Positions 8,146-21,820 of a stretch of DNA of 64,000 nucleotides are shown here, in pieces (the first letter of the stretch is position 1; each line of letters begins with the position of its first letter). Source of the DNA: Chroococcidiopsidaceae cyanobacterium CP_BM_ER_R8_30 (GTDB lineage Bacteria > Cyanobacteriota > Cyanobacteriia > Cyanobacteriales > Chroococcidiopsidaceae); assembly GCA_019244235.1 (NCBI GenBank), contig JAFASY010000227.1, forward strand, positions 1 through 64,000. Reading direction: 5' to 3'. A model generated the notes under the pieces. That model was given only the letters and a program-made list of their open reading frames with translations. It did no database searches and had not been told where the DNA came from. A program made the translations under genes and the position numbers.

Positions 8146-9567
8146 TCAATCAATTAAACGAAAATAATGTACAGCCACACCTAATTCTCTGCTATCACCA
8201 TTATGATAAACTTTTGCAGGACACCAAGTTTGGCTACTGATATTTATTTGACCACTCCAATTTTGGGATGGCACTCTGTATATACCTTTGCTAGAGTGCT
8301 TATCCAATCGAAAGCTATGAGTTGAATGACCATCGCCCAGTTTCACATCCAAATCAAGAGGTGCGTAATTACTCAAACAAAACTCGATCCACTTTACATT
8401 AACGTCCTTTTGGCAAGTTATAACTGAGTGAGCACCTGTAAAGCGCTGTTTTAAACTTGAATCTGCCTCTGGTGGTGCCCAAGTTTTACATTCATCGGGT
8501 GGCAGAGTAATTTCACTCAACTCATAGTACATATGACTTTTTCTAGCTATGATTACGTCAGCTAGAGGACTAGCATCAGAGCTATATCGCTTAGGTGTCC
8601 AACCAAGTAGCAATAGCGTTTTCATAAAGTAGGATGTGTTAAATCCCAGTTCAAGCCAGCCAAACTTGCGGATAGACCAAACTGACATTCCCTCCAATCG
8701 CACTCCCCACTGATATGGGAAATCTGCAACTGGTTCTGCTGCAAAAGCAACCAAACCTTGATCGTCAATTAAATCGTGTAGATTTTTTAGCAACTTTAAA
8801 TGATTTGAACAATGATGAAAGCACGAAAAGAATACTGCAGCATTATACTTAGTAGTGGAGCTAAACTCCAGCATATCTCCTTTAACGAAGTTGACTTTTT
8901 TCAATACCTTTTCTGTTCGGTATTTAATCAAATCAATAAAAGACTGTTCGCTGTCTACCGCAGTTACTTTATAATCCATCTGGGCAAAGTGTAAAGTTGT
9001 ATTTCCCCATCCAGGACCAAATTCTACAATATGAGAACCAGGAGCTAAATTCATGATTTTAATAACAAACCCTTCGGCAATCAGATGATCTCCTACAGTC
9101 GTTGGGCTTTTTGTACAGTAAGGATATGGGTTATTTTTCAATCTCTCAAAATCGAAATCCACATGTTCATTCTCAACCGCATACTGTTTTTTACCTGATA
9201 TATCCAAATATAACTTCATCTGAGTATCGTAATACTCTTGGGAGTATGGATCTGATGGAAGACTACTACTATCTACTGCATAGCAAAACTCAGATAGTGC
9301 TTGCCTAAGTTGATCGTCCGAGATTTTGGCTTGCTCATCGGCTGCAGCAATTTCTCTGTCTAACGCTTCCAAGGTACTAATATATCTCACTGGCTTATCC
9401 TTGTTGTCAAGAACAGAACCATCCAATTTTATTTCTTCAGACTTAGGTAAAATCTTTTCGTCAATCATCGTAACTAACTTACTTTTGTTATCAGCAGTAA
9501 ACTCTTTTATGATCTTTTTTAAAGATACAGGTAAAATCTTTTTGATGACGATTACGAAATTATCCAT
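8146..9567 (-). CDS. SAM-dependent methyltransferase with N- and C-terminal extensions
   Basis: The 473-residue product has a class I methyltransferase core at about residues 160-330: motif I HIVEFGPGWGNTTLHFA, motif II acidic residue in VTAVDSEQSF and a NAAVFFSCFHHC motif IV region. An N-terminal stretch of about 110 residues is helical and polar. The last 100 residues (KWIEFCLSNYAPLDLDVKLG onward) look like a separate beta-rich accessory domain. Methylation of a sugar or of a carrier-linked glycan is the likely role, given glycosyltransferases on both sides (gaps 17 and 59 bp). The C-terminal domain is not one I can name. Confidence 0.75.
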   Translation of the reverse strand: MDNFVIVIKKILPVSLKKIIKEFTADNKSKLVTMIDEKILPKSEEIKLDGSVLDNKDKPVRYISTLEALDREIAAADEQAKISDDQLRQALSEFCYAVDSSSLPSDPYSQEYYDTQMKLYLDISGKKQYAVENEHVDFDFERLKNNPYPYCTKSPTTVGDHLIAEGFVIKIMNLAPGSHIVEFGPGWGNTTLHFAQMDYKVTAVDSEQSFIDLIKYRTEKVLKKVNFVKGDMLEFSSTTKYNAAVFFSCFHHCSNHLKLLKNLHDLIDDQGLVAFAAEPVADFPYQWGVRLEGMSVWSIRKFGWLELGFNTSYFMKTLLLLGWTPKRYSSDASPLADVIIARKSHMYYELSEITLPPDECKTWAPPEADSSLKQRFTGAHSVITCQKDVNVKWIEFCLSNYAPLDLDVKLGDGHSTHSFRLDKHSSKGIYRVPSQNWSGQINISSQTWCPAKVYHNGDSRELGVAVHYFRLID

Positions 9568-9584
9568 GATTTATTTATGCTGAA

Positions 9585-10757
9585 TTAGCAACTCCTCAGT
9601 AAACTCAAGTATTCACTTTCTATCTTTGACCATACATAATTTGCTTTTACAAAAGCTTTGCCCTGCACCCCCAACTGCTTTCTAACTGGCTCATCCATCT
9701 TCTCTAAAGCCACCTGAAACTCATCTCTATTGGTGTACCACAGCCCGCCTTGTGCCCTGCGACATTGCCCTACTAGAACTTCACACTTGCCATTGACTAA
9801 TACAGGTTTACCTACTGTCCAAGCTTCTAACAGTACCATAGAAAGACTTTCATAGGGAGATGGCATCACTAGTAAGTCACAAGCAGCTAAAGCATCCCAC
9901 TTAGTCTGCTCATCTACAAAACCTAATGACACAATATCTGGATGCTGAGGAATTGGCATCATTGGCTTACCCAACAACACTAATTTCCTCGAACCAAAAT
10001 CCTGTTGCAAGCGCGACTCCATATAGTGGCGAAACAATTCTTCACATCCTTTAGATGGATCGATCCTGCCAATATATAGCAAAAATGGTTCATGGATGTT
10101 GTATCGCTGTCGAAAGCTTTCCGCACTATAGACGGCTGGTGGCTCTACCGCTATCCCTGCAACAGGTCCCTTTAAGTTAGCTTTAGGGAAGCGCAACTTA
10201 AGAAAATTCCTTTCTTCTAACGTATTAAATATAAAGCCGCGCGGCTTCGCAAACAGGGAATCCCACATGCTCATGTAAATTGGCCATTCATCGTGAGCTA
10301 AGGGAGCTAAAAATGCCTTGTCTTGAACAATCGGTAATGTCAAGTACGTAGTTGCGTACAGATAGGTAAAAAATATAAAAGCATCGTACTCATGCTTATG
10401 TTTCTTTACATATGTAATGAGTTCAGGAGAGTATGGACCTTGAGCGTACATCCATGCTTCTTGTTCCTCAATAGATGCTTCTCTTAAGCGAGAAAAGAGC
10501 TTATCAGATAAAATATTAAAGGTTTTTAAATTCCGCTGTTTTGCAACACGGAAGCGTCGAATTTTAACACCAGCAATCTCTACAATTCCAGGTGGATAAT
10601 AATTCTGCCAAGTTAAATAATCAAATGCACAGGTTGTTAATATCTCTGTACTCCAGTACTGAGACATTCGCTCTGAAACTTTGAGACAGTGAGCTTCTGC
10701 ACCACCATTAACCTCTAATCCACATCTTTGAACTACGAAAGCTACTCGTTGTTTCAT
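9585..10757 (-). CDS. GT4-family glycosyltransferase
   Basis: A 390-residue GT-B enzyme. The N-terminus AFVVQRCGLEVNGGAEAHCL is the acceptor-domain start seen in GT4 proteins that begin with a GGAE motif. The donor domain has FLLYIGRIDPSKGCEELF and the acidic EX7E motif in PYESLSMVLLEAWTVGKPVL. It starts at ATG 10757, 22 bp after the long methyltransferase-DUF4214 protein, and it resembles in layout the first half of the double transferase at 13142-15475. Sugar donor is unknown; UDP- or GDP-hexose is typical. Confidence 0.88.
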   Translation of the reverse strand: MKQRVAFVVQRCGLEVNGGAEAHCLKVSERMSQYWSTEILTTCAFDYLTWQNYYPPGIVEIAGVKIRRFRVAKQRNLKTFNILSDKLFSRLREASIEEQEAWMYAQGPYSPELITYVKKHKHEYDAFIFFTYLYATTYLTLPIVQDKAFLAPLAHDEWPIYMSMWDSLFAKPRGFIFNTLEERNFLKLRFPKANLKGPVAGIAVEPPAVYSAESFRQRYNIHEPFLLYIGRIDPSKGCEELFRHYMESRLQQDFGSRKLVLLGKPMMPIPQHPDIVSLGFVDEQTKWDALAACDLLVMPSPYESLSMVLLEAWTVGKPVLVNGKCEVLVGQCRRAQGGLWYTNRDEFQVALEKMDEPVRKQLGVQGKAFVKANYVWSKIESEYLSLLRSC

Positions 10758-10778: not shown

Positions 10779-13103
10779 CTAAGTAATTCCTAAGTTATTA
10801 GAATTTGTGTAGTAATCTTTGAGAGCGGATGGCGGAGTGGAGACAATACGGTTTACGATAGCTCTGCTACGAGCTTTATCAGTGTTTTTAGAAAAAACGT
10901 AATACATCTTTCTACCTATCGCCGTTTTTTCCATATAGTCATCATATTTCTTATGCAATACTTTCTCTATCTCCACTTCACGACGAAATCCATGCTGTTC
11001 AAACTGCTGTACCCACCAGGATGAACTAGCCCAAATTAAATGTCCGTGAATTGGATATCCGTCTGGATCAACAGGAAGTTGAGTAAAAATCTTGCCCTGA
11101 AGGCTGTCCTGCTCCCACTGCTTAATATAAAGAGGAAAAACAGTACCAAAAATAGGATCAGTATCAAATACAGGAATGTTACAAAATAGATAGCTACCAT
11201 CGCTTAATACTTGCTCAATTTTAGCAATGTAGTTATTCAGTTTGTTAGGGTTTAAGTGTTCAAAAATATCTAAACCAAAAACAAAATCGTATTGTCCTGA
11301 TAACTGAATATTTAATATATCCCCCTTATGAATGTTGTTTTTAATCTCAGGAAAGGCTTTTGATATAGCCATCTGACTAATTTCAACTCCCTCACAGTTC
11401 ACATTTAATTCGTGAAGGCACTTTAGTATCGTACCATTCGCGCAGCCTATTTCTAAAGCTCGCTCTGGATTGAATGTCGATACGATTTCAGCCATGACTC
11501 TCTTATCAAGATTAATATTAAAACCCCATACCCCTGGTTTCTCATAGTAGCCATGTTCTACAATCATTGATTCCAACCAATCAAAGTCTTCGTCAGACTT
11601 TGCATGAAAGATTAAAACTTTATCTTCCTGTGAAAGATGCTCGACTAATTCATAACTTGGTGGTCTCAATTCTCTTAAGCTTTGAACTAAGTTATTTTCT
11701 CTTAAAACCTTATTGACAAACTCATCTGATTTAACGAGATCTATCAAAACAGAAGTTCTGCTGTGTCCAGATTCTAAAAGTCTTAGGTAATTGTTAAGAC
11801 CGCTTTCATCTATATCTCGACCGAGTATTTCTCGATAAGTCTCTTCTAAAAATTCTTTATTTGAAGGAAATGAGCTATTTTCTCTTAAAACTTTATTGGC
11901 AAACTCGTCTGATTTAACTAACTCTAGTAGAACCTCAGTTCTGCTATATCCAGCTTTTAAATGTCTTGTAAAGCTATTGAGACCCTCTCGATCTATATCC
12001 CGACCAAGTATTTCTCGATAAGCCTCCTCTAAAAACTTTTTGTCGGAATCAACTGTCAAGCCTATTCTATTCGCTGTTCTCTTAACTGAATTTACTGATG
12101 TGTTATCTATCTTATCTAAAGTTTCCTTCTTGCTTTTGTCACCTAAATTGATTAAAGGTTGACTCTTTAGAAAATTATCAGAATGGTATGATTCCAGTTG
12201 ATCGCCAGGATAACTTCTATATAAGAAATCAGGTCTTTTCTCACGGGCTCTTCTAGTGTTTAATGCTTTAACAAAAATATATTGTCCTAAATCCAGTTCT
12301 CGCTTTTTTAAAAAGGGCTCTAACTGGACGGCTGAATAATGCTTGCTAGAGTCATTATGATACACATCGGCAGTAAAAATCGTACCAGTTGAAAAGCCAA
12401 TATAATTAAGTAGTAAATCTAATTCATGTTTGTTATACTCCCGATTATGTCTGCCATACGGACCATAGCCGGAGTAAGGATCATAAATGTTAATACCTCC
12501 AATCATCTTAGTGACGTTCTCTAGTCTGTTAACATTTGGTGTAGTAAGAACTAGTACTCCATTTGGCTTTAATACTCTTTTTATCTCTTTCAAGACAGAA
12601 ACGGGATCTATAATCAGATGCTCTATAATTTCGCAAAACAGAACAATGTCAAATTCTGCATCATTAAAAGGGAACTGCTCTCCTTCTATGTTGAAGTGAT
12701 GAGATTCAAGCTTAGCTAATAAAGGCTCTCCAGATTTAAAATCTTTGTATGTAACCTCTTGCGTAAGTCGCTCTTCAAAGTGAGGACTAAAATAATTAGC
12801 TAAAGTTAGCTCCAGTTGGGTAAACTGCCGCAACAGCATAGTGGTGAAGTATGGATTTGAACCTAGTTCGAGACACTTTCCTGTTAAATCTCGTACTAGT
12901 CCATATGTGTAGACAAATCTCCTAAAGTCCTGTTCGCAATAATTAGCCATCTCCTGGGGAGGAGCATCTGCAATTAGGACGGATTTTAAAAAAGCTCTTA
13001 GCTCACTTTCAGAAACGCCCTTTGGTAAAGGTAATTCTGGAGTGAGAGGAAACAAAGCATTGGGTTGTGGCTCTAAAGCGTTCTTGACTTTCCGATTCAT
13101 CAT
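10779..13103 (-). CDS. methyltransferase - DUF4214 x2 - methyltransferase fusion
   Basis: A 774-residue protein with four modules. Residues about 60-240 are a methyltransferase-type domain (KCLELGSNPYFTTMLL; FDIVLFCEIIEHL; LKPNGVLVLTTPN). Residues about 353-405 and 414-466 are two near-identical helical repeats, FLEEAYREILGRDIDREGLN and FLEETYREILGRDIDESGLN, each closing with LVKSDEFxNKVLREN, the DUF4214 pattern. Residues about 530-720 are a second methyltransferase domain (ERALEIGCANGTILKCL; DFVFGLDIFEHL). DUF4214 occurs in glycan-related and surface proteins. The protein probably methylates the growing glycan at one or two positions while the repeats mediate docking. The first domain's motif I lacks the usual GxGxG and may have changed activity. 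Confidence 0.8.
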   Translation of the reverse strand: MMNRKVKNALEPQPNALFPLTPELPLPKGVSESELRAFLKSVLIADAPPQEMANYCEQDFRRFVYTYGLVRDLTGKCLELGSNPYFTTMLLRQFTQLELTLANYFSPHFEERLTQEVTYKDFKSGEPLLAKLESHHFNIEGEQFPFNDAEFDIVLFCEIIEHLIIDPVSVLKEIKRVLKPNGVLVLTTPNVNRLENVTKMIGGINIYDPYSGYGPYGRHNREYNKHELDLLLNYIGFSTGTIFTADVYHNDSSKHYSAVQLEPFLKKRELDLGQYIFVKALNTRRAREKRPDFLYRSYPGDQLESYHSDNFLKSQPLINLGDKSKKETLDKIDNTSVNSVKRTANRIGLTVDSDKKFLEEAYREILGRDIDREGLNSFTRHLKAGYSRTEVLLELVKSDEFANKVLRENSSFPSNKEFLEETYREILGRDIDESGLNNYLRLLESGHSRTSVLIDLVKSDEFVNKVLRENNLVQSLRELRPPSYELVEHLSQEDKVLIFHAKSDEDFDWLESMIVEHGYYEKPGVWGFNINLDKRVMAEIVSTFNPERALEIGCANGTILKCLHELNVNCEGVEISQMAISKAFPEIKNNIHKGDILNIQLSGQYDFVFGLDIFEHLNPNKLNNYIAKIEQVLSDGSYLFCNIPVFDTDPIFGTVFPLYIKQWEQDSLQGKIFTQLPVDPDGYPIHGHLIWASSSWWVQQFEQHGFRREVEIEKVLHKKYDDYMEKTAIGRKMYYVFSKNTDKARSRAIVNRIVSTPPSALKDYYTNSNNLGIT
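11690..12050 (-). repeat. about 180-bp intragenic tandem duplication (two DUF4214 modules)
   Basis: Two copies of an approximately 180-bp unit lie side by side inside the methyltransferase fusion gene. For example, CAAACTCRTCTGATTTAAC recurs near 11717 and 11900, and TATTTCTCGATAAG recurs near 11825 and 12008. The high DNA identity indicates a fairly recent duplication of one module. Confidence 0.7.
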
Positions 13104-13141: not shown

Positions 13142-15475
13142 CTATGACTCCATCTTGGAAATCACTCGTCTTAATTGCTTCATCACCACTGTAGGTAAGA
13201 AACTCTCTCGCCTTTTTCGCTCTCGCTCTATAACTTTCAAACGTAAATCTTTATCCTTTACCAGCAGTTTGGCAAGAGCTGCTACTTTAAGAAGATCGTC
13301 TTTACTGGTAAACATTATTCCAGCGTCGGCTAAAGTTTCTGGTACAGCGCTACTCTTATAGGCAAGCACAGGAATATCGAACCACATTGATTCGACCAAT
13401 GGTACACAAAAACCTTCATGTTCGCTCATTGACCAGAACAAGTGAGCAGTTCGATAAAAAGCTAGTAACTGTGAATCGTTAACTTGTCCTGTAACCAGAA
13501 CATGCCCAGTTAAGCCTAGTTTTCGAGTTGTATTGACAATACTAGACCAGTAGGGGTCGTTGGTTTCATGACTACCCGCAATAATTAGACGGGCGTTGCT
13601 ATCCATCGTCAGGTAATGAGCAAAAGCCTCCACAAGGTGATCTTGTCGCTTGTTGGGAGATATACGACCAACAAAAAGGAGGTTAGATTTACCATCTTGT
13701 AATTGCTTTATCCATGAAGCATCTGCAGCAATGTCCCACTTTCTCGGATCTATAGTGATAGGTAATACCTCTGGTTGATAGAATCCAGATGCAGCAAGTT
13801 CGGCAGCGTTATAAGCTGAATCGCCGACTGATATTGAGAAGGGCGTAGCTAGCAGATTCAGTTCAGAGCGACCTTTTTCGAGAATTTTGGCAAACTCGGG
13901 TCGGTAAGGCTGAAAAAACTCTGCTGGTGTGATGTTATGGTAGATGAGGCATTTAGGACCTGAATGTTTAATTGCGTGTTCTGTCAGTTCAGAGCCAATC
14001 GAGTGGTGATAGAATAACCCCGCTTGACGATCGATAATATTTGGCTGAAAGACTTTTGCCTCTTGAGTTAAGCGTTCATCTATATATCTCACAAAAATCT
14101 CTGATTTGTAACCCCAACTACGTAAGTAATTTCTGATTGTCAGTGCATGATTAGAAATAGCATCACCGTAAGAAAGATTAGGTAATAGTTGATGTATTTC
14201 TTTGAGTTTTGTTTCTGATTGTGGTTCAGGAAAAATTCTGACTTCTTCTACCGATAGTTCCAGTGCTGCTTCGTAGCGTTCAATGACCCTATCCCAGATT
14301 GCATTTGCTTCAGCATATCCTTGACCGTTAAAGCCATACTGTGCTAATTTAACTTCTTCAATACCATCTATTGTGGAGAAGAGCTCTTGCCACTCAGCTT
14401 TTGTTCCTGCTACCCACCCTCCTTGTGCCTGTTCAACAGCAATGGCAGTAGCTAAGCAATCCTTATGGGCAGCAACAGGTTTTCCATACAACCAAGCCTC
14501 CATCATGACACGAGAATAACTTTCATTACGACTTGGTTGAAAGAGGGCTAAGCAATGAGCTAACAATGCTTCTTTCTCGTTTTCTTCTACTAAACCCAAA
14601 TCGAATACACCTGGTATAGCACCATTAAAAGATAGGCTTCCAGGACCAGCTAGAACAAGCTTTAGATCTGTATCTGGATGCTTATACTTAAAATCTGCAT
14701 ATACATCTACTAATAAATTTGTATTCTTTCCAGGATCGCGACGACCTAGGCAAAGGATAAATCGCTCTTGCTTAACTCTGAAATCTCGTATTTTTTCTAT
14801 TTGATTAATTGCTTCATTGCCACATCGACTGATTTCCACACCAGCACCAACTACTGTGCTTTTTGGAATAATTCCTGGTCCATATAGCTGTTTAGCCAAC
14901 TGAGCTTCGCCATCGCTAATGAATAATAAACCTTTAGCTGTGTGAAAAATATTGGCTACTCTAGGTAAATACGCATATACTTCATTATGTAGACAAGGTA
15001 GTAAAAAAGCTTTGCTGGCAACAAGCGGTAAACCATTTAGAATTGGACCATAAAGATAAGGGATAAAAATAAACGCATGATATTTTTCTTGCTGATTTTC
15101 CAGATAGCTAAGCAAATCAGCAGAATTAATATTTTCGGAGCTGAATATAGCCTCGTCTTCTAATGAAATAGGATTTACTCCAACTTTTAATGTAGAAGCA
15201 GGCAAGCTCAGCATCAAACCATTAATACGATCAAAATTGTGTTGCTTTCGTTCATCCACCGGGAAGCGCACAATTTTGAGATTTTGCTCTTGCACCGTTC
15301 CGGCTGGCAAATGGTTGAGAGCCCAATCTTCATGAAATGAGCGACAACATGTTGTTAATACCTCAACGGGATATCCTCGATTCGCTAGACGTGTTGCGAC
15401 TTGCCATGCGTGTTGTTCTGCTCCTCCCTTTAAATCCTTACCATACCAAGGGGTAACAATAGCTATTGGTTTCAT
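13142..15475 (-). CDS. double glycosyltransferase (two GT4 units in one chain)
   Basis: A 777-residue fusion of two GT-B transferases. Unit 1 (residues 1-400) starts AIVTPWYGKDLKGGAEQHAW and has FILCLGRRDPGKNTNLLVDV and ESYSRVMMEAWLYGKPV. Unit 2 (about 420-775) has a GDAISNHALTIRNYL start, NLLFVGRISPNKRQDHLVEA and the EX7E motif EHEGFCVPLVESMWFDIPVL. Two active sites suggest it adds two successive sugars. Its ATG overlaps the stop of the upstream methyltransferase gene in an ATGA, a sign of translational coupling. Similar double transferases are known in bacterial O-antigen and EPS loci. Confidence 0.87.
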   Translation of the reverse strand: MKPIAIVTPWYGKDLKGGAEQHAWQVATRLANRGYPVEVLTTCCRSFHEDWALNHLPAGTVQEQNLKIVRFPVDERKQHNFDRINGLMLSLPASTLKVGVNPISLEDEAIFSSENINSADLLSYLENQQEKYHAFIFIPYLYGPILNGLPLVASKAFLLPCLHNEVYAYLPRVANIFHTAKGLLFISDGEAQLAKQLYGPGIIPKSTVVGAGVEISRCGNEAINQIEKIRDFRVKQERFILCLGRRDPGKNTNLLVDVYADFKYKHPDTDLKLVLAGPGSLSFNGAIPGVFDLGLVEENEKEALLAHCLALFQPSRNESYSRVMMEAWLYGKPVAAHKDCLATAIAVEQAQGGWVAGTKAEWQELFSTIDGIEEVKLAQYGFNGQGYAEANAIWDRVIERYEAALELSVEEVRIFPEPQSETKLKEIHQLLPNLSYGDAISNHALTIRNYLRSWGYKSEIFVRYIDERLTQEAKVFQPNIIDRQAGLFYHHSIGSELTEHAIKHSGPKCLIYHNITPAEFFQPYRPEFAKILEKGRSELNLLATPFSISVGDSAYNAAELAASGFYQPEVLPITIDPRKWDIAADASWIKQLQDGKSNLLFVGRISPNKRQDHLVEAFAHYLTMDSNARLIIAGSHETNDPYWSSIVNTTRKLGLTGHVLVTGQVNDSQLLAFYRTAHLFWSMSEHEGFCVPLVESMWFDIPVLAYKSSAVPETLADAGIMFTSKDDLLKVAALAKLLVKDKDLRLKVIERERKRRESFLPTVVMKQLRRVISKMES

Positions 15476-17040
15476 AGTTTATGTCCAACTACTGCATAAT
15501 CACGCGCACCGAAAAACCAATTATGAAGGACTTGCGAGCCCATGTCTTCTTGAGTAAAAGGACTCGCCTCCGCTGGATGTAAGTAAAGTATTTCCACATT
15601 TGATAATCCTATATATCTTAAAAGGAATTGAATCGTCTCCGGAAAAATTGGATGACGGTGTGTTGGATCTGAATAAAAGTTACAAGCACCTACTACTAAA
15701 TTTTTTGGATTTGGTGTCTCAAAAATGCTCAATCCGCCTGGTTTAAGTACTCTTACTGTCTCACCTAAAAGTTTTATTAGTACTGTAAAAGATAAATGTT
15801 CAACAATATGAAAACCAGTTATTACACCTAGACTAGCATCAGGTAGGGTTTGAAGATAAGAAATCGCGTCTCCCTCAATGACTTCGAGTTTTCTTGCTTG
15901 GCATTGTTCTACCATACTCCTATTTATGTCTAGACCACGAGCTGTATATCCAGATTCATGCAGCAACTCTAGCCACTCTCCACGTCCACATCCTAGATCT
16001 AGGATGGGTAAGTCTTGTGTATTCACTTTTACTTTTTCAATCAAAGGCAAGTATGCTGTCAACCTATCTATAATTTCTGCACGGCTGCCACGAAATTGCT
16101 CTTCAAAAGCCGCGTAAAAAGCATCTAGCAAATGCGATTCTTCATTCACAAGTGTCTGAAGCTGTTCCTGGTCAAAAGGTTCTGGTAGACGTTGACGGGC
16201 TTCCTCAAGAAAAAGGGTAATAAGTCGTTTCTGCTGTGCTAAGTCATTCTTGAGATAGCTATCATCTCTTAGATGAAGCTCATCCATAGTTTTCATCCGC
16301 TCGTCGGTAGCCGTTAGATGGTGGTCTATTGTTGCAACTCGCTCGTCGGTAGCTATTAGATGGTGATCTATCGCTACTGCCCGCTCGTCGGTAGCCGTTA
16401 GATGGTGATCTATTGTTGCAACTCGCTGGTCAGTAGCTGTTAAATGGTGGTCTATTGTTACTATGCGCTCGTTAGTAGCCGTTAGATGGTCGTCTAGCAC
16501 TACAACTCGCTCATCGATAGCCGTTAGATGGTCGTCTAACACTGCAACTCTCTCATCGGTGGTCACTAGACGATCGTTCATGTCTGTCACCTGCACCAGT
16601 GTGGCAGCCAGGTGTTCGCCCATCAAGCTAACCTGAGTTTGAAGAGCAGCTACTTGCTCAATTAACCTACGGTTTAGAGTTAGAGAGTCCTTTGCTGCTT
16701 GGATTAAAGGTAAATTAACGACTCGTTGCTTTTTAAATAGGAACCCATACAGCTTTAAGCCAAATCTCTGTAGCGGCTTACTGATACTGAATGGAAAACG
16801 ATTAAACTTTTCTGGAAATTTTGTGGGTAGCTGAGCATTCATCTCAGCATCATTCAGCAAATATTCTATATTTTTAAAATCTACTTCATTTATAGTACTT
16901 ACACTTGTAGTACCTATGTTAAAGTTGAAATTACTGTTGATATTTTTGGGTGTGAAGTTTTTTTGACGTTTAGCAACTTCTTCTAAGACACTCTGCATTA
17001 ATTTATCAACGTCAATTTCAGGATTGTTTGCCTCAATCAT
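15472..17040 (-). CDS. methyltransferase with tandem-repeat coiled coil (possible chain-end modifier and ruler)
   Basis: A 522-residue protein. Residues 1-25 (PEIDVDKLMQSVLEEVAKRQ) are an N-terminal helix often seen in polysaccharide methyltransferases. Residues about 105-280 are a long coiled coil; within it about 150-247 are six to seven copies of a 14-residue unit such as TDERVATIDHHLTA, two heptads with hydrophobics at a/d. Residues about 345-490 are a class I methyltransferase: LPILDLGCGRGEWLELL, LGVITGFHIVEHL, LKPGGLSIFETPNP. In E. coli O9a, WbdD combines a methyltransferase with a coiled coil that measures chain length; here the order is reversed and no kinase is seen. The neighbouring ABC exporter makes a chain-terminating role plausible but unproven. 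Confidence 0.8.
   Translation of the reverse strand: MIEANNPEIDVDKLMQSVLEEVAKRQKNFTPKNINSNFNFNIGTTSVSTINEVDFKNIEYLLNDAEMNAQLPTKFPEKFNRFPFSISKPLQRFGLKLYGFLFKKQRVVNLPLIQAAKDSLTLNRRLIEQVAALQTQVSLMGEHLAATLVQVTDMNDRLVTTDERVAVLDDHLTAIDERVVVLDDHLTATNERIVTIDHHLTATDQRVATIDHHLTATDERAVAIDHHLIATDERVATIDHHLTATDERMKTMDELHLRDDSYLKNDLAQQKRLITLFLEEARQRLPEPFDQEQLQTLVNEESHLLDAFYAAFEEQFRGSRAEIIDRLTAYLPLIEKVKVNTQDLPILDLGCGRGEWLELLHESGYTARGLDINRSMVEQCQARKLEVIEGDAISYLQTLPDASLGVITGFHIVEHLSFTVLIKLLGETVRVLKPGGLSIFETPNPKNLVVGACNFYSDPTHRHPIFPETIQFLLRYIGLSNVEILYLHPAEASPFTQEDMGSQVLHNWFFGARDYAVVGHKL
16298..16591 (-). repeat. 42-bp tandem repeat encoding heptad coiled coil, about seven units
   Basis: The word CGCTCGTCGGTAG or a close variant starts at 16298, 16340, 16382, 16424, 16466, 16508 and 16550, exactly every 42 bases. 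Each unit encodes 14 residues, two heptads, so changes in copy number keep both reading frame and coiled-coil phase. Confidence 0.9.
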
Positions 17041-17227: not shown

Positions 17228-18634
17228 TTAAGGCTTCCTAACAAACAAGTAGACATTATCGCGTTCATAGTTTAGCTTAAATTGTTGCGTTTTCTGAATT
17301 TGGTTCACTAGATCAAAGGCGTACTTTTTAGTATCAGGCCAAGGATGACGTAAATTTAGTAACACGTAACTCATCTTAGGTAAATCATCAGCTGCTACAT
17401 CAGAAGAGATTTGCTTTATAAGTGGTCGGTGAGTTACCTGAGGTGCGTATTGGTTGTCTGTTAAAACACCTCCTTTAGTCTGAATTTGCTCGATTGCATC
17501 CTCTGTTGCTTTCCATGTATCAAGGGTCTTTAGATAAGAATGAAAATCACCATACTTCGCTAGTATTAGGAAAGCGAGTATCGACCATAATACTATTGTT
17601 CGTCCACTGCGCAACCATCCTTGACCTGCAGCTAGGCTAGAAATCACAGCCACTATGAGAAAAGGCTCTATAGGTAAGGAGTATTGCGTTGTCAATGACA
17701 ATTGGCCTGGATCGGTAGAGAGAATGTTCAGGGCTAGCGTAGGAACTGCACCCATTAGAGGTGCTAGATGCCGTAATGAAAGCCCCCAGATAACTGGTGA
17801 TATCAGCAAAAGCAAGTATTCAAAAGTTTTCAGGGAAATAATTTGCCCCAGTATTAGCCATGGCTTAAGTACTAGATTTCTGGCAATCTCTGGAAAAGAG
17901 TTTCCTAAGTAGCTATACCGCGAGATATGTCGACCTATTGTTACGACATCATTACCAAAATATGGAATAATCGCTTGCGTAGAAATGATAAACCAGGCAA
18001 CACCTGCAAATAAGGCGATCGCGCCACATAAACGTTTCCTTTCACATATAAGTAGCCAAATCCCCATTGCCGCTACAGTCAACGACAATACTTCTTTACA
18101 AGCCATCACAATGGCGATGGCCAAACAGAACCAACCAGTTTGTCCCAGTCGTGCTGACAAAATTGCCCAGAGCAGCGCGGGTAAAGCAATTACCTCTGGA
18201 TGGAAATCAAACAAATTGATATTAAAAACCACTGGATACAGGAGGTACGCTGCTGCCACCGCTATTGCTTGCCCCTGTTTCAGCCCTGCGTGACGAGATA
18301 AACTCCAGGTTGGCAAAGCTCCTATTGCTAAAGCTACTGCTTGTACAGCTAACAACCAGTGGACATCTGGATAAATTTTGTAAAGTATGCTAAGAGGATA
18401 AAGAATTACAGCTGCATGGTCAGCAAGAACGTGGAAACCCATCAAAGAAGAAAAAGCTGGTAGTCCTTGGCTCATCAGGTAAACAGCCTGATCGAATATC
18501 CCTAAATCCCAAGCTGTTGAGTGAAAGAGTGCATGTTTTGCACTGCTATAGGTAAACAGAATTAGGGCACTAATACCGATCATTATGTAAACAGAGCTGA
18601 TATCGGGGCTGACGTTAGGCAATCTTTTGTTCAT
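17228..18634 (-). CDS. DUF2079 multi-TM membrane protein
   Basis: A 468-residue integral membrane protein with about ten helices. The first periplasmic loop carries the DUF2079 marks WDLGIFDQAVYLMSQG and HVLADHAA, followed by NLFDFHPEVIALP. The acidic and histidine residues after the first helix resemble GT-C transferase active loops, so a polyprenyl-linked sugar transferase is possible though unproven. A short soluble C-terminal part follows the last helix. It lies between the GT4 gene upstream and the coiled-coil methyltransferase downstream, with a 187-bp gap before the latter that could contain an internal promoter. Confidence 0.82.
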   Translation of the reverse strand: MNKRLPNVSPDISSVYIMIGISALILFTYSSAKHALFHSTAWDLGIFDQAVYLMSQGLPAFSSLMGFHVLADHAAVILYPLSILYKIYPDVHWLLAVQAVALAIGALPTWSLSRHAGLKQGQAIAVAAAYLLYPVVFNINLFDFHPEVIALPALLWAILSARLGQTGWFCLAIAIVMACKEVLSLTVAAMGIWLLICERKRLCGAIALFAGVAWFIISTQAIIPYFGNDVVTIGRHISRYSYLGNSFPEIARNLVLKPWLILGQIISLKTFEYLLLLISPVIWGLSLRHLAPLMGAVPTLALNILSTDPGQLSLTTQYSLPIEPFLIVAVISSLAAGQGWLRSGRTIVLWSILAFLILAKYGDFHSYLKTLDTWKATEDAIEQIQTKGGVLTDNQYAPQVTHRPLIKQISSDVAADDLPKMSYVLLNLRHPWPDTKKYAFDLVNQIQKTQQFKLNYERDNVYLFVRKP

Positions 18635-18703: not shown

Positions 18704-19987
18704 CTACAAAACCACATTGTAGGCGTCAGATAGTTTTTTTATGTAATTATCCATACTAAATAATTTGACTCTCTCCCTGCCAGCTTCTGAGAGTTTTGCT
18801 CCCACTTGTGGATCATTAATCATCTTTTCTATTTTCTCTTTGATGTCAGTAACATCGTAAGGATTAACATAGAGCGCAGCGTCTCCGCATACTTCTGGTA
18901 AAGATGCGGCGTTGGACGTAATAACTGGACAGTTAAAACTCATGGCTTCCAAAGGTGGCAACCCAAATCCTTCATATAAGGACGGAAAAACTAGACAAAG
19001 CGCTCCTTGATAAAAGTATCCCAAATCATTATTTGACACATATTCTAGAAATTTGACTTTGGCTGCAAAGCGTTTATCAAAAGTAGAATTTAATTTTCCA
19101 ATCTCGCCTTTCCATAACCAGCCCTTCTTGCCAACAATTATGAGCTGCATGTCTGTATCCAGTTCTGCATAAGCATCTATCAATCTTCCTAAATTTTTCT
19201 TTGGTTCTATAGCTCCAACAAATAGAATGTATTTTTTAAATTTGATTTCATATTTTTTTAAAAAAGCCTTGACTCTTTCTTCTTCAAGTAATGGCTTTAG
19301 TAGTACGGGTTGATAAGTTACATGAACTTTATCTGAAGTAATGTCAAAAATATTTAAGATATCCCTTTTTGAGTTCTCTGACACGGTGATGATAATACTT
19401 GAATCTTTTATACTGTCTTTAACCAGAGTATAAAATGCTTTTTTATCATCTAACGTTGTGTAGGGAAGTCTTAGTGGTATCAAATCATGAATTGTTGTAA
19501 TCTTTTTTGCTCTCCTAATTTTTATAGGGAGCGGACAGGTCGAATGCCATATATCTATCTGGTAAGGAGTAGTAATCTTTATTTGTTTTCCAAAAAATTT
19601 ATATAAAGTATTAGCTGATAAATAACATGATGAAAGATTAAGGATTTCTGATGAACTGAGCAATTCGTCACTGAATTCAGTTTGAAGAACCTGTCTGCCA
19701 GCTTTTATCTTTGTGGGTTGGTTAAACAAACCAATGCTTGTCTTGGCCAAGGTTCTAATCAAATCAATCTTACTAAGCTTTCTATTATTGGGATTGTCGA
19801 ATAATAAAACTTCGTTTAAAATCGAATCGTTACTGTTACTGCCACTACGACTAAATAATATATTTACATCTGCTTCTAGTAGATTTAAAGCTTGAACTAA
19901 ACTCTTGCTATAAGTTTTGATTCCTGTACCAGTTGGCAGTTCTAAATTATATCCATCGACTAGAACATTGATTCCTTTTAAACTCAT
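18704..19987 (-). CDS. GT4-family glycosyltransferase
   Basis: A 427-residue GT-B transferase. The N-terminal [20 protein letters not shown] carries the glycine-rich acceptor loop. The donor half has [20 protein letters not shown] and the EX7E motif in [20 protein letters not shown] followed by [15 protein letters not shown]. It resembles the enzyme at 2126-3196 in its motifs. It is the first transferase gene after the ABC exporter genes (40-bp gap), a place often taken by an early-acting mannosyl- or rhamnosyltransferase; the sugar is not readable. Confidence 0.88.
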
Positions 19988-20027: not shown

Positions 20028-20759
20028 TTAGACTGACTCAAGATATCGCTGAATTGCTGTTTCTGTATCACCTATAAACCTAACCTTGCCTTTATCTAAC
20101 CAGATAACTTTGTCACAAGATTGCATAATGAAACTAAGTTCATGAGACACAACTAAAACCGTTGAATTTGCTTCCCAAAACTTATCAATTCGCTGCTTAC
20201 ATTTATTTTTAAAGCTCTGATCTCCCACAGATAAAACTTCATCTAAAATCAGAATATCCGGTTGTACATCTGTAGCGATCGCAAATCCTAACCTTGCCAC
20301 CATCCCTGAAGATAATGCCTTAACAGGCAACACCGCATACTCCTGTAGCTCGGCAAACTCCAAAATCGAATCGACTCTGCCTCGCATCTGGTCCCGTGAG
20401 AACCCCAACAATACCCCATAAAGTAAAATATTATCTATCACTGAAATTTCTGGATCGAACCCTGCCCCTAGTTCAATCAGTGGCGCAATTTTCCCCCGTA
20501 CCCGCACCAAGCCCTTCGTCGGTCGCAAAATGCCACAAATTACCTTCAGGAGTGTTGACTTTCCGGCTCCATTCGCGCCAATAATTCCCACCTTGTTTCC
20601 CGCTTCTACAACCAGCGCGATTTGGTCCAGGACCAACTTTCTGGCTGGTTGGCGATACTTACCCTCGACAACGGACAACACAGTTCTTTTCAGATCGTAT
20701 GAAAATTCCTCCTGTGTTCGCCGCCAGAGCGAAACCTGATCTAGGCGAATAACTTCCAC
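20028..20759 (-). CDS. Wzt-like ABC transporter ATPase, short form without C-terminal domain
   Basis: ATPase of a polysaccharide (Wzt/TagH/RfbE-type) exporter. Walker A is GANGAGKST, the signature region is ALSSGMVARLGFAIA (a degenerate LSGGQ, as in this family) and Walker B is ILILDEVLSVGD. The chain ends after 243 residues, so the C-terminal carbohydrate-recognition domain found in O9a-type Wzt is absent. Export by this type is then less selective for the chain end, as in O-antigen systems using short Wzt. The start is a GTG at 20759 placed directly after the permease stop TAA, so the two genes abut without a gap. Confidence 0.9.
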   Translation of the reverse strand: MEVIRLDQVSLWRRTQEEFSYDLKRTVLSVVEGKYRQPARKLVLDQIALVVEAGNKVGIIGANGAGKSTLLKVICGILRPTKGLVRVRGKIAPLIELGAGFDPEISVIDNILLYGVLLGFSRDQMRGRVDSILEFAELQEYAVLPVKALSSGMVARLGFAIATDVQPDILILDEVLSVGDQSFKNKCKQRIDKFWEANSTVLVVSHELSFIMQSCDKVIWLDKGKVRFIGDTETAIQRYLESV

Positions 20760-21605
20760 TTATAGTAAATCCATAAACTGAGTACGCCACACTTGAAAAC
20801 AAGTCAATCCAAGTGTGAAAATGATCAAACCACTGAGCAATGCTTCCCCAATTAAACTTAAGCTAGGTGCCCTTCCAGATAGAGCAATTTGTCGCAAACT
20901 CTCAATAATCGGCAGTAACGGATTCAAGAACAAAAAAGGCTGCACCCGAGTCGGCACAATTGCTGTTGGATAGAATATAGGAGTACCAAACAAGAGGGCA
21001 AATACGACTAACTCATAAAAGTAGGACAAATCTCTAAAAAATACGTATAACGCACTTACCAGAAATCCCACCCCGATACAAACTAGAATCAGAGCCAGCA
21101 ATGGTATTGTCAGGGCTAGGGCATTGATGAATCTTCCAGAAGTCAGCAATGTGACAGTCATCAGTAATGGCAGCACGCTAACCGTTAACTGAAATACATT
21201 TGCTGTAATCATCGATACTGGAAACACACTTACTGGCAATTGAATCTTGTTCAAAAGTGCCCCATTACTCACTACACTTGGTAATGCTTGGGATGTTGAA
21301 GCCGAGAAAAAATTCATCACAACTACGCCTGTAAACGCTGCTAGCGCATAGTTGAGATACGAGTGTCCGTAATACGGCGTAAACGCTGCTCCAAAGACTG
21401 CCGTATACAACCCCGTCATAGTCAGTGGATTTAACAACGACCAACCGATACCTAGTAACGATCCCCGATAGCGCACCTTCAGGTTTCGCGTCACCAGAAC
21501 ATTCAGCAACTCCCAGTAGCGCTGCACTTGCGACAGGCTAGCGTCAGATTTTAGAGAGCGCGGCACTTGCAACAAGCGAACGCCAGATCTTAGAGAAAGC
21601 TTCAT
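20760..21605 (-). CDS. Wzm-like ABC-2 polysaccharide export permease
   Basis: Six-helix ABC-2 permease that moves the lipid-linked glycan across the inner membrane with the adjacent ATPase. Recognisable parts are YWELLNVLVTRNLKVRYRGS with the amphipathic helix before TM1, LLGIGWSLLNPL, FRDLSYFYELV and GTPIFYP. I choose ATG 21605 (281 residues, normal length). A longer frame from TTG 21746 would add 47 residues with no family match. It is the first gene of the minus-strand locus, so the promoter should lie between 21605 and about 21820, a region shared with the divergent DUF2862 gene. Confidence 0.9.
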   Translation of the reverse strand: MKLSLRSGVRLLQVPRSLKSDASLSQVQRYWELLNVLVTRNLKVRYRGSLLGIGWSLLNPLTMTGLYTAVFGAAFTPYYGHSYLNYALAAFTGVVVMNFFSASTSQALPSVVSNGALLNKIQLPVSVFPVSMITANVFQLTVSVLPLLMTVTLLTSGRFINALALTIPLLALILVCIGVGFLVSALYVFFRDLSYFYELVVFALLFGTPIFYPTAIVPTRVQPFLFLNPLLPIIESLRQIALSGRAPSLSLIGEALLSGLIIFTLGLTCFQVWRTQFMDLL

Positions 21606-21820
21606 CCTCAAACACCCCGAAAACACCAGAAGCAATTTATCCAGGTATTCTACCCTATGCAATTGCTGCCGCTCCAAGAACACTCCCCCAATTTCCAACG
21701 GAGACTGAGTATTGTCAAGCCCTAGTGGTTGATGTCTTATGTCCAACAGATTTGAGATAGCTATGCTCTCGTTCGAAGGTTCCGCTACACTGATTCATGT
21801 TAATTGCAGCGTGATTTGGA

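What the first reader, a model, noticed from the sequence alone, without database searches (positions are those of the whole stretch)
15472..17040. Tandem-repeat coiled coil joined to a methyltransferase beside an ABC glycan exporter
A 42-bp repeat (seven units from 16298) encodes exactly two heptads per unit. In E. coli O9a the WbdD coiled coil measures polysaccharide length and its methyltransferase caps the chain. Here the order is coiled coil before methyltransferase and no kinase is found, so it would be a different architecture. Repeat copy number could tune chain length.
Basis: partly seen in the sequence, partly recalled or inferred. Interest (0 to 1): 0.65.

Follow-up and report, generated by a model that had tools for sequence, protein, structure and literature searches.

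The report
Reversed, repeat-tuned glycan length ruler
A cyanobacterial gene encodes a protein that appears to hold a sugar-capping enzyme away from the membrane on a rod built from 42-base DNA repeats; its relatives carry from a few to thirteen copies, so bacteria may set the length of their surface sugar chains by gaining or losing repeats.

Summary
ORF 15472-17040(-), 522 aa, has a conserved N-terminal basic helix region, a coiled-coil segment with an in-frame 42-bp array (6.3 copies, no indels) and a C-terminal class I methyltransferase; there is no kinase. The closest characterised relative I found is not O9a WbdD but the methyl-only WbdD of E. coli O8: the methyltransferase is 51% identical over 157 aa. 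Module order is reversed: O8 is methyltransferase-coil-basic tail, here anchor-coil-methyltransferase. The family is widespread in cyanobacteria and also found in Pseudomonas. A Wzt lies within 5 kb in 53 of 62 testable loci; in 48 it carries the Wzt_C carbohydrate-binding domain. A glycosyltransferase follows in 61 of 62. Arrays occur in 30 of 66 family genes against 8 of 553 neighbouring genes, 25 of the 30 with period 42 bp. Two species of one genus, 96-98% identical in the flanks, carry 12 and 5 units. Best explanation: a polarity-reversed WbdD-type chain terminator whose ruler changes by repeat gain and loss. The window's own Wzt lacks the recognition domain, so the export checkpoint is not met there. 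No glycan length was measured.

The parts
15472..17040 (-). coiled-coil methyltransferase (CC-MT), 522 aa
16714..16875 (-). conserved N-terminal region with basic, helix-predicted segment (aa 56-109, ...NRFPFSISKPLQRFGLKLYGFLFKKQRVVN), proposed membrane anchor / polymerase docking site
   Evidence: family consensus NxFPFNxSxxLQKxxLKxxNFxFKDQREVN, net charge +2 to +7 in all 52 relatives compared; helix 89-104 in a low-confidence model; hydrophobic moment above shuffles at p=0.04 only
16264..16713 (-). coiled-coil spacer (aa 110-259, about 150 residues)
   Evidence: continuous helix 110-256 in the model, pLDDT mostly 60-77 from about aa 140; hydrophobic periodicity peaks near 3.5/7 in relatives; least conserved part, 26% identity
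16298..16560 (-). 42-bp tandem array, 6.3 copies, 14 aa (two heptads) per unit
16000..16263 (-). linker from the end of the coil to the SAM motif, 88 aa, invariant in length in 34 of 34 relatives with both anchors
15475..16122 (-). class I SAM-dependent methyltransferase domain (GCGRGEWL, FHIVEHL, ETPNPKN, DPTH)
   Evidence: Pfam/PDB; 51% identity over 157 aa to the O8 WbdD-position enzyme; alignment
13142..15475 (-). two-module GT4 glycosyltransferase, 777 aa; start overlaps the CC-MT stop by 4 bp (translational coupling likely); candidate polymerase
   Evidence: downstream gene is a glycosyltransferase in 61 of 62 relatives
20028..20759 (-). Wzt-like ABC ATPase, 243 aa, without Wzt_C carbohydrate-binding domain
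20760..21746 (-). Wzm-like ABC-2 permease (called 328 aa from TTG; relatives of 268-291 aa suggest a later start)
17228..18634 (-). DUF2079 membrane protein between CC-MT and exporter
18704..19987 (-). GT4 glycosyltransferase
10779..13103 (-). protein with two methyltransferase domains and two DUF4214 domains
9585..10757 (-). GT4 glycosyltransferase
8146..9567 (-). methyltransferase, 473 aa

Best explanation
The protein is a chain-terminating methyltransferase of the WbdD(O8) kind with its modules in reverse order. Its N-terminal basic region sits at the cytoplasmic membrane and/or binds the co-translated glycosyltransferase; the coiled coil stands off the membrane; the methyltransferase at the far end methylates the non-reducing end of an undecaprenol-linked glycan once it is long enough to reach, which stops elongation. 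Shown here: module content and order, homology of the methyltransferase to the O8 enzyme, linkage to Wzm/Wzt and a glycosyltransferase, coil length differing by in-frame 42-bp repeat number between close relatives. Inferred: membrane attachment, oligomeric rod, methylation of the terminal sugar, and that coil length sets chain length.
For: Methyltransferase 51% identical (E 5e-51) to the protein in the WbdD position of the E. coli O8 cluster wzm-wzt-MT-GT-GT-wbdC, and O8 WbdD is a simple methyltransferase terminator (PMC3482155). Gene order wzm-wzt-CC-MT-GT recurs in cyanobacteria and Pseudomonas: Wzt within 5 kb in 53 of 62 testable loci, Wzt_C in 48 of 48 long ones, GT downstream in 61 of 62, often with a 4-bp overlap. 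In WbdD the catalytic domains are held about 20 nm from the membrane and insertions or truncations of the coil change chain length (PMC5082667); the window coil of about 150 residues would be about 22 nm at 1.485 A per residue (inference). The coil is the least conserved part (26%) between conserved ends (48% and 60-68%), with an invariant 88-aa linker, as expected of a spacer. Repeat arrays in 30 of 66 family genes against 8 of 553 neighbours (Fisher p 1.6e-25).
Against: No biochemical data. The window's Wzt has no Wzt_C domain and the genome's only Wzt_C hit is a broken fragment, so the terminator-recognition checkpoint cannot work as in O8/O9a. Nine of 62 loci have no Wzt nearby. Membrane-anchor evidence is modest (moment p=0.04). 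The structure model is poor overall (pLDDT 44.6, pTM 0.20). Direct homology to O9a WbdD was not tested.
Confidence: 0.6

Rival explanations
1. A terminating or decorating methyltransferase whose coiled coil serves only for oligomerisation or for scaffolding with the glycosyltransferase; coil length drifts neutrally through repeat slippage and has no effect on chain length.
For: Close relatives tolerate coils of 105 and 217 residues and the family spans about 53-217, a wide range; tandem repeats slip without selection for length.
Against: Linker length is invariant (34 of 34); register is kept more often than chance (11 of 25 independent nonzero differences are multiples of 7, p 3e-4), though register alone would also be kept for a scaffold. 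In the experimentally studied WbdD the coil is a ruler.
Confidence: 0.22
2. The methyltransferase modifies an internal or branch sugar of the glycan (one of several methyltransferases in the cluster) and is not a terminator.
For: The cluster holds at least three further methyltransferase domains (8146-9567, 10779-13103); the window exporter lacks the terminus-recognising domain.
Against: The specific homologue, in the same cluster position, is the O8 terminator; 48 of 53 linked exporters carry Wzt_C.
Confidence: 0.1
3. The enzyme acts on glycans attached to secreted RTX/DUF4214 surface proteins, not on an ABC-exported polysaccharide.
For: Methyltransferase relatives on alphaproteobacterial plasmids lie beside DUF4214 proteins, type I secretion and glycosyltransferases; cyanobacterial loci L044-L046 lack Wzt and have a large protein upstream that looks DUF4214-like by eye; DUF4214 occurs inside L015's CC-MT and in the window's 10779-13103 protein.
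Against: The window cluster and most relatives have Wzm/Wzt in the cluster.
Confidence: 0.08

Closest known systems
WbdD of E. coli O8 (methyl-only chain terminator; L129:2831-4264, identified by cluster position and O8 wzm/wzt annotation)
   Same: Methyltransferase subfamily (51% identity over 157 aa, all motifs shared), no kinase, coil, basic segment at the other end, wzm-wzt-MT-GT gene order; the plasmid copies in E. coli and Serratia also carry a tandem duplication (52 aa) in the coil region.
   Different: Module order: methyltransferase at the N terminus in O8, at the C terminus here. O8 Wzt is 404 aa; the window Wzt is 243 aa without Wzt_C. O8 repeat unit is 52 aa, here 14 aa.
WbdD of E. 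coli O9a / K. pneumoniae O3
   Same: Coiled coil carrying a methyltransferase, beside an ABC exporter; experimentally a molecular ruler (PMC5082667, PMC11231755).
   Different: Has a kinase and the opposite order; sequence relation to the window enzyme not tested, and PDB search returned no WbdD among the 13 matches.
MT of E. coli O101/O162 (Onovel32) O-antigen cluster
   Same: Methyltransferase plus coil, proposed ruler (PMC13168486).
   Different: Methyltransferase N-terminal, coil C-terminal.
K. pneumoniae O4 ORF7, O7 ORF6, O12 WbbB terminators
   Same: Terminator plus coiled-coil ruler in ABC-dependent systems (PMC11231755).
   Different: Other chemistries (Kdo, methyl-phosphate); terminator module N-terminal to the coil as described there.

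Membership tests
WbdD-type coiled-coil chain terminator | terminating catalytic domain of a known terminator family | tested here: met
   homology to the O8 enzyme
WbdD-type coiled-coil chain terminator | extended coiled coil | tested here: met
   sequence-based, oligomer not tested
WbdD-type coiled-coil chain terminator | catalytic domain N-terminal, coil then membrane region C-terminal | tested here: not met
   order is reversed here and in all full-length relatives read
WbdD-type coiled-coil chain terminator | membrane association opposite the catalytic domain | tested here: inconclusive
   conserved basic helix-predicted region; moment p=0.04
WbdD-type coiled-coil chain terminator | encoded with Wzm/Wzt and polymerase glycosyltransferase | tested here: met
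WbdD-type coiled-coil chain terminator | terminates chain growth by modifying the non-reducing end; coil length sets chain length | not testable with these tools
   needs mutants and glycan analysis
O9a WbdD | kinase domain | tested here: not met
   no kinase in Pfam/NCBIfam scans
Wzm/Wzt-CBM export with terminus checkpoint | Wzt_C domain on Wzt | tested here: not met
   not met in the window; met in 48 of 53 relatives

The most novel reading that the evidence does not exclude
A polarity-reversed glycan ruler whose length is encoded by a minisatellite: 42-bp slippage changes the coil by whole heptad pairs without frameshift, giving graded rather than on/off variation of surface-glycan length.
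Probability: 0.4. Interest if true: 0.75.

Novelty: new variant of a known kind. Interest (0 to 1): 0.6.

Why it matters
If right, it shows that membrane-coil-terminator geometry, not chain polarity, is what is conserved in glycan rulers, and it offers natural length series (coil of about 53 to 217 residues; 12 against 5 identical-type units in two near-identical relatives) with which the ruler model can be tested. Graded tuning by a frame-neutral minisatellite would differ from the usual on/off contingency loci.

Tried and rejected
Kinase partner: none found in scanned neighbours. Hydrophobic-moment test of the anchor is weak. Simple claim that every length change is a multiple of 7 is false: 19 of 37 nonzero differences among close pairs and 11 of 25 independent ones are; three related genes use a 66-bp (22-aa) unit. 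Genome-contig scan gave few relatives; its Bacteroidetes locus L016 matches only the methyltransferase weakly and was dropped. The likely key survey of terminators (Mann et al. 2019, cited in PMC11231755) is not in the library, so whether the reversed order was noted there is unknown. Searches for P. aeruginosa PA5459 literature found nothing.

Full report
What is there. ORF 15472-17040(-) encodes 522 aa. TRF reports a 42-bp array at 16298-16560, 6.3 copies, 79% matches and no indels. Codon-shuffled versions of the gene scored at most 53 against 281. In frame the unit is 14 aa, two heptads. The C-terminal half is a class I methyltransferase. The gene is single copy in its genome.

Family. Relatives were found in 5 of 19 genomes of the family, 19 of 386 of the phylum sample and 51 of 218 of the family of G142 (the larger searches scored few candidates per genome, so these are lower bounds). 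Full-length relatives share the order conserved N-terminal region, coil, methyltransferase. Identity to the window protein is 48% in the anchor region, 26% in the coil, 68% in the linker and 60% in the methyltransferase, over 52 proteins.

Coil length. The linker from coil end to the SAM motif is 88 aa in all 34 genes where both anchors were found, while the coil varies; placing the same 88-aa linker in 61 genes gives coils of 53 to 217 aa. Of 25 phylogenetically independent nonzero differences, 11 are multiples of 7 (1/7 expected, p 3e-4). Arrays with TRF score of 100 or more occur in 30 of 66 family genes and 8 of 553 neighbouring genes; 25 of the 30 have period 42, three 66, one 63, one 84. 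Unit sequences differ between lineages by eye, which suggests repeated origin or turnover; this was not tested formally. L108 and L110, two species of one genus, are 97.7% (5' 390 nt) and 95.9% (3' 900 nt) identical, yet have 12 and 5 units by strict motif count, 11 of the 12 identical in DNA; the coils are 217 and 105 aa. Assembly collapse or expansion of repeats in draft genomes cannot be excluded for any single case.

Context. Excluding the window and three loci at contig ends (L047, L106, L110), 53 of 62 loci have a Wzt within 5 kb (counted). 48 are long (423-459 aa) and all 48 carry Wzt_C; five are short (L039, L042, L043, L103, L015), and these and the window's lack it. The gene after CC-MT is a group 1 glycosyltransferase in 61 of 62, and in the window and many relatives it overlaps the CC-MT stop by 4 bp. 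Pseudomonas plasmids show Wzt-CC-MT-GT.

Relation to known terminators. The E. coli plasmid hit lies in an O8 cluster, wzm-wzt-MT-GT-GT-wbdC. Its methyltransferase is 51% identical over 157 aa and motifs align throughout. The record does not name the gene; I identify it as WbdD(O8) by position and by the published description of O8 WbdD as a simple methyltransferase (PMC3482155). It has the opposite order: methyltransferase, coil, basic C-terminal region. In WbdD of O9a, coil insertions or truncations raise or lower modal chain length (PMC5082667), and only terminated chains bind the carbohydrate-binding domain of Wzt (PMC11231755). The plasmid O8 copies of E. coli and Serratia carry a 52-aa tandem duplication absent from the 1278-bp alleles listed for other E. 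coli.

Mechanism. The simplest reading is that anchor, rod and terminator keep the same spatial order while the chain runs the other way. Steps shown: architecture, homology, linkage, repeat-number variation. Steps inferred: membrane attachment, oligomeric rod, terminal methylation, length control. In the window the checkpoint role of Wzt is absent; CC-MT may still cap chains, or export may be coupled differently, as the short Wzt resembles galactan-type exporters only partially (205.9 bits against a cut-off of 400).

Limits. Counts of loci are not independent. No glycan is known for this organism. Novelty of the reversed order rests on the papers that could be read; a relevant 2019 survey could not.

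Noticed in passing
window 11693-12035, within ORF 10779-13103(-): 183-bp duplication (80% matches) inside a protein with two methyltransferase and two DUF4214 domains.
   Followed up: partly
L124, L126, L127, L131: Methyltransferase relatives on proteobacterial plasmids lie near DUF4214 proteins; on Sulfitobacter and Roseomonas plasmids also type I secretion genes.
   Followed up: partly
L129:2831-4264: O8 cluster methyltransferase on E. coli and Serratia plasmids has a 52-aa tandem duplication in the coil; listed E. coli alleles of 1278 bp have one copy.
   Followed up: partly
L044, L045, L046: Three related genes with a 66-bp (22-aa) unit instead of 42 bp; hydrophobic period 3.64 in L046, closer to a hendecad coil.
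   Followed up: no
L098, gene nt 382-727: 63-bp unit, 5.5 copies, 98% matches: three heptads per unit.
   Followed up: no
L133 (own genome, C157:5536-5799): Only Wzt_C match in the window's genome, a fragment with an in-frame stop close to a transposase-like ORF.
   Followed up: partly
window 21518-21596: 39-bp direct duplication in the first part of the Wzm ORF, near where relatives of 268-291 aa suggest the true start.
   Followed up: no
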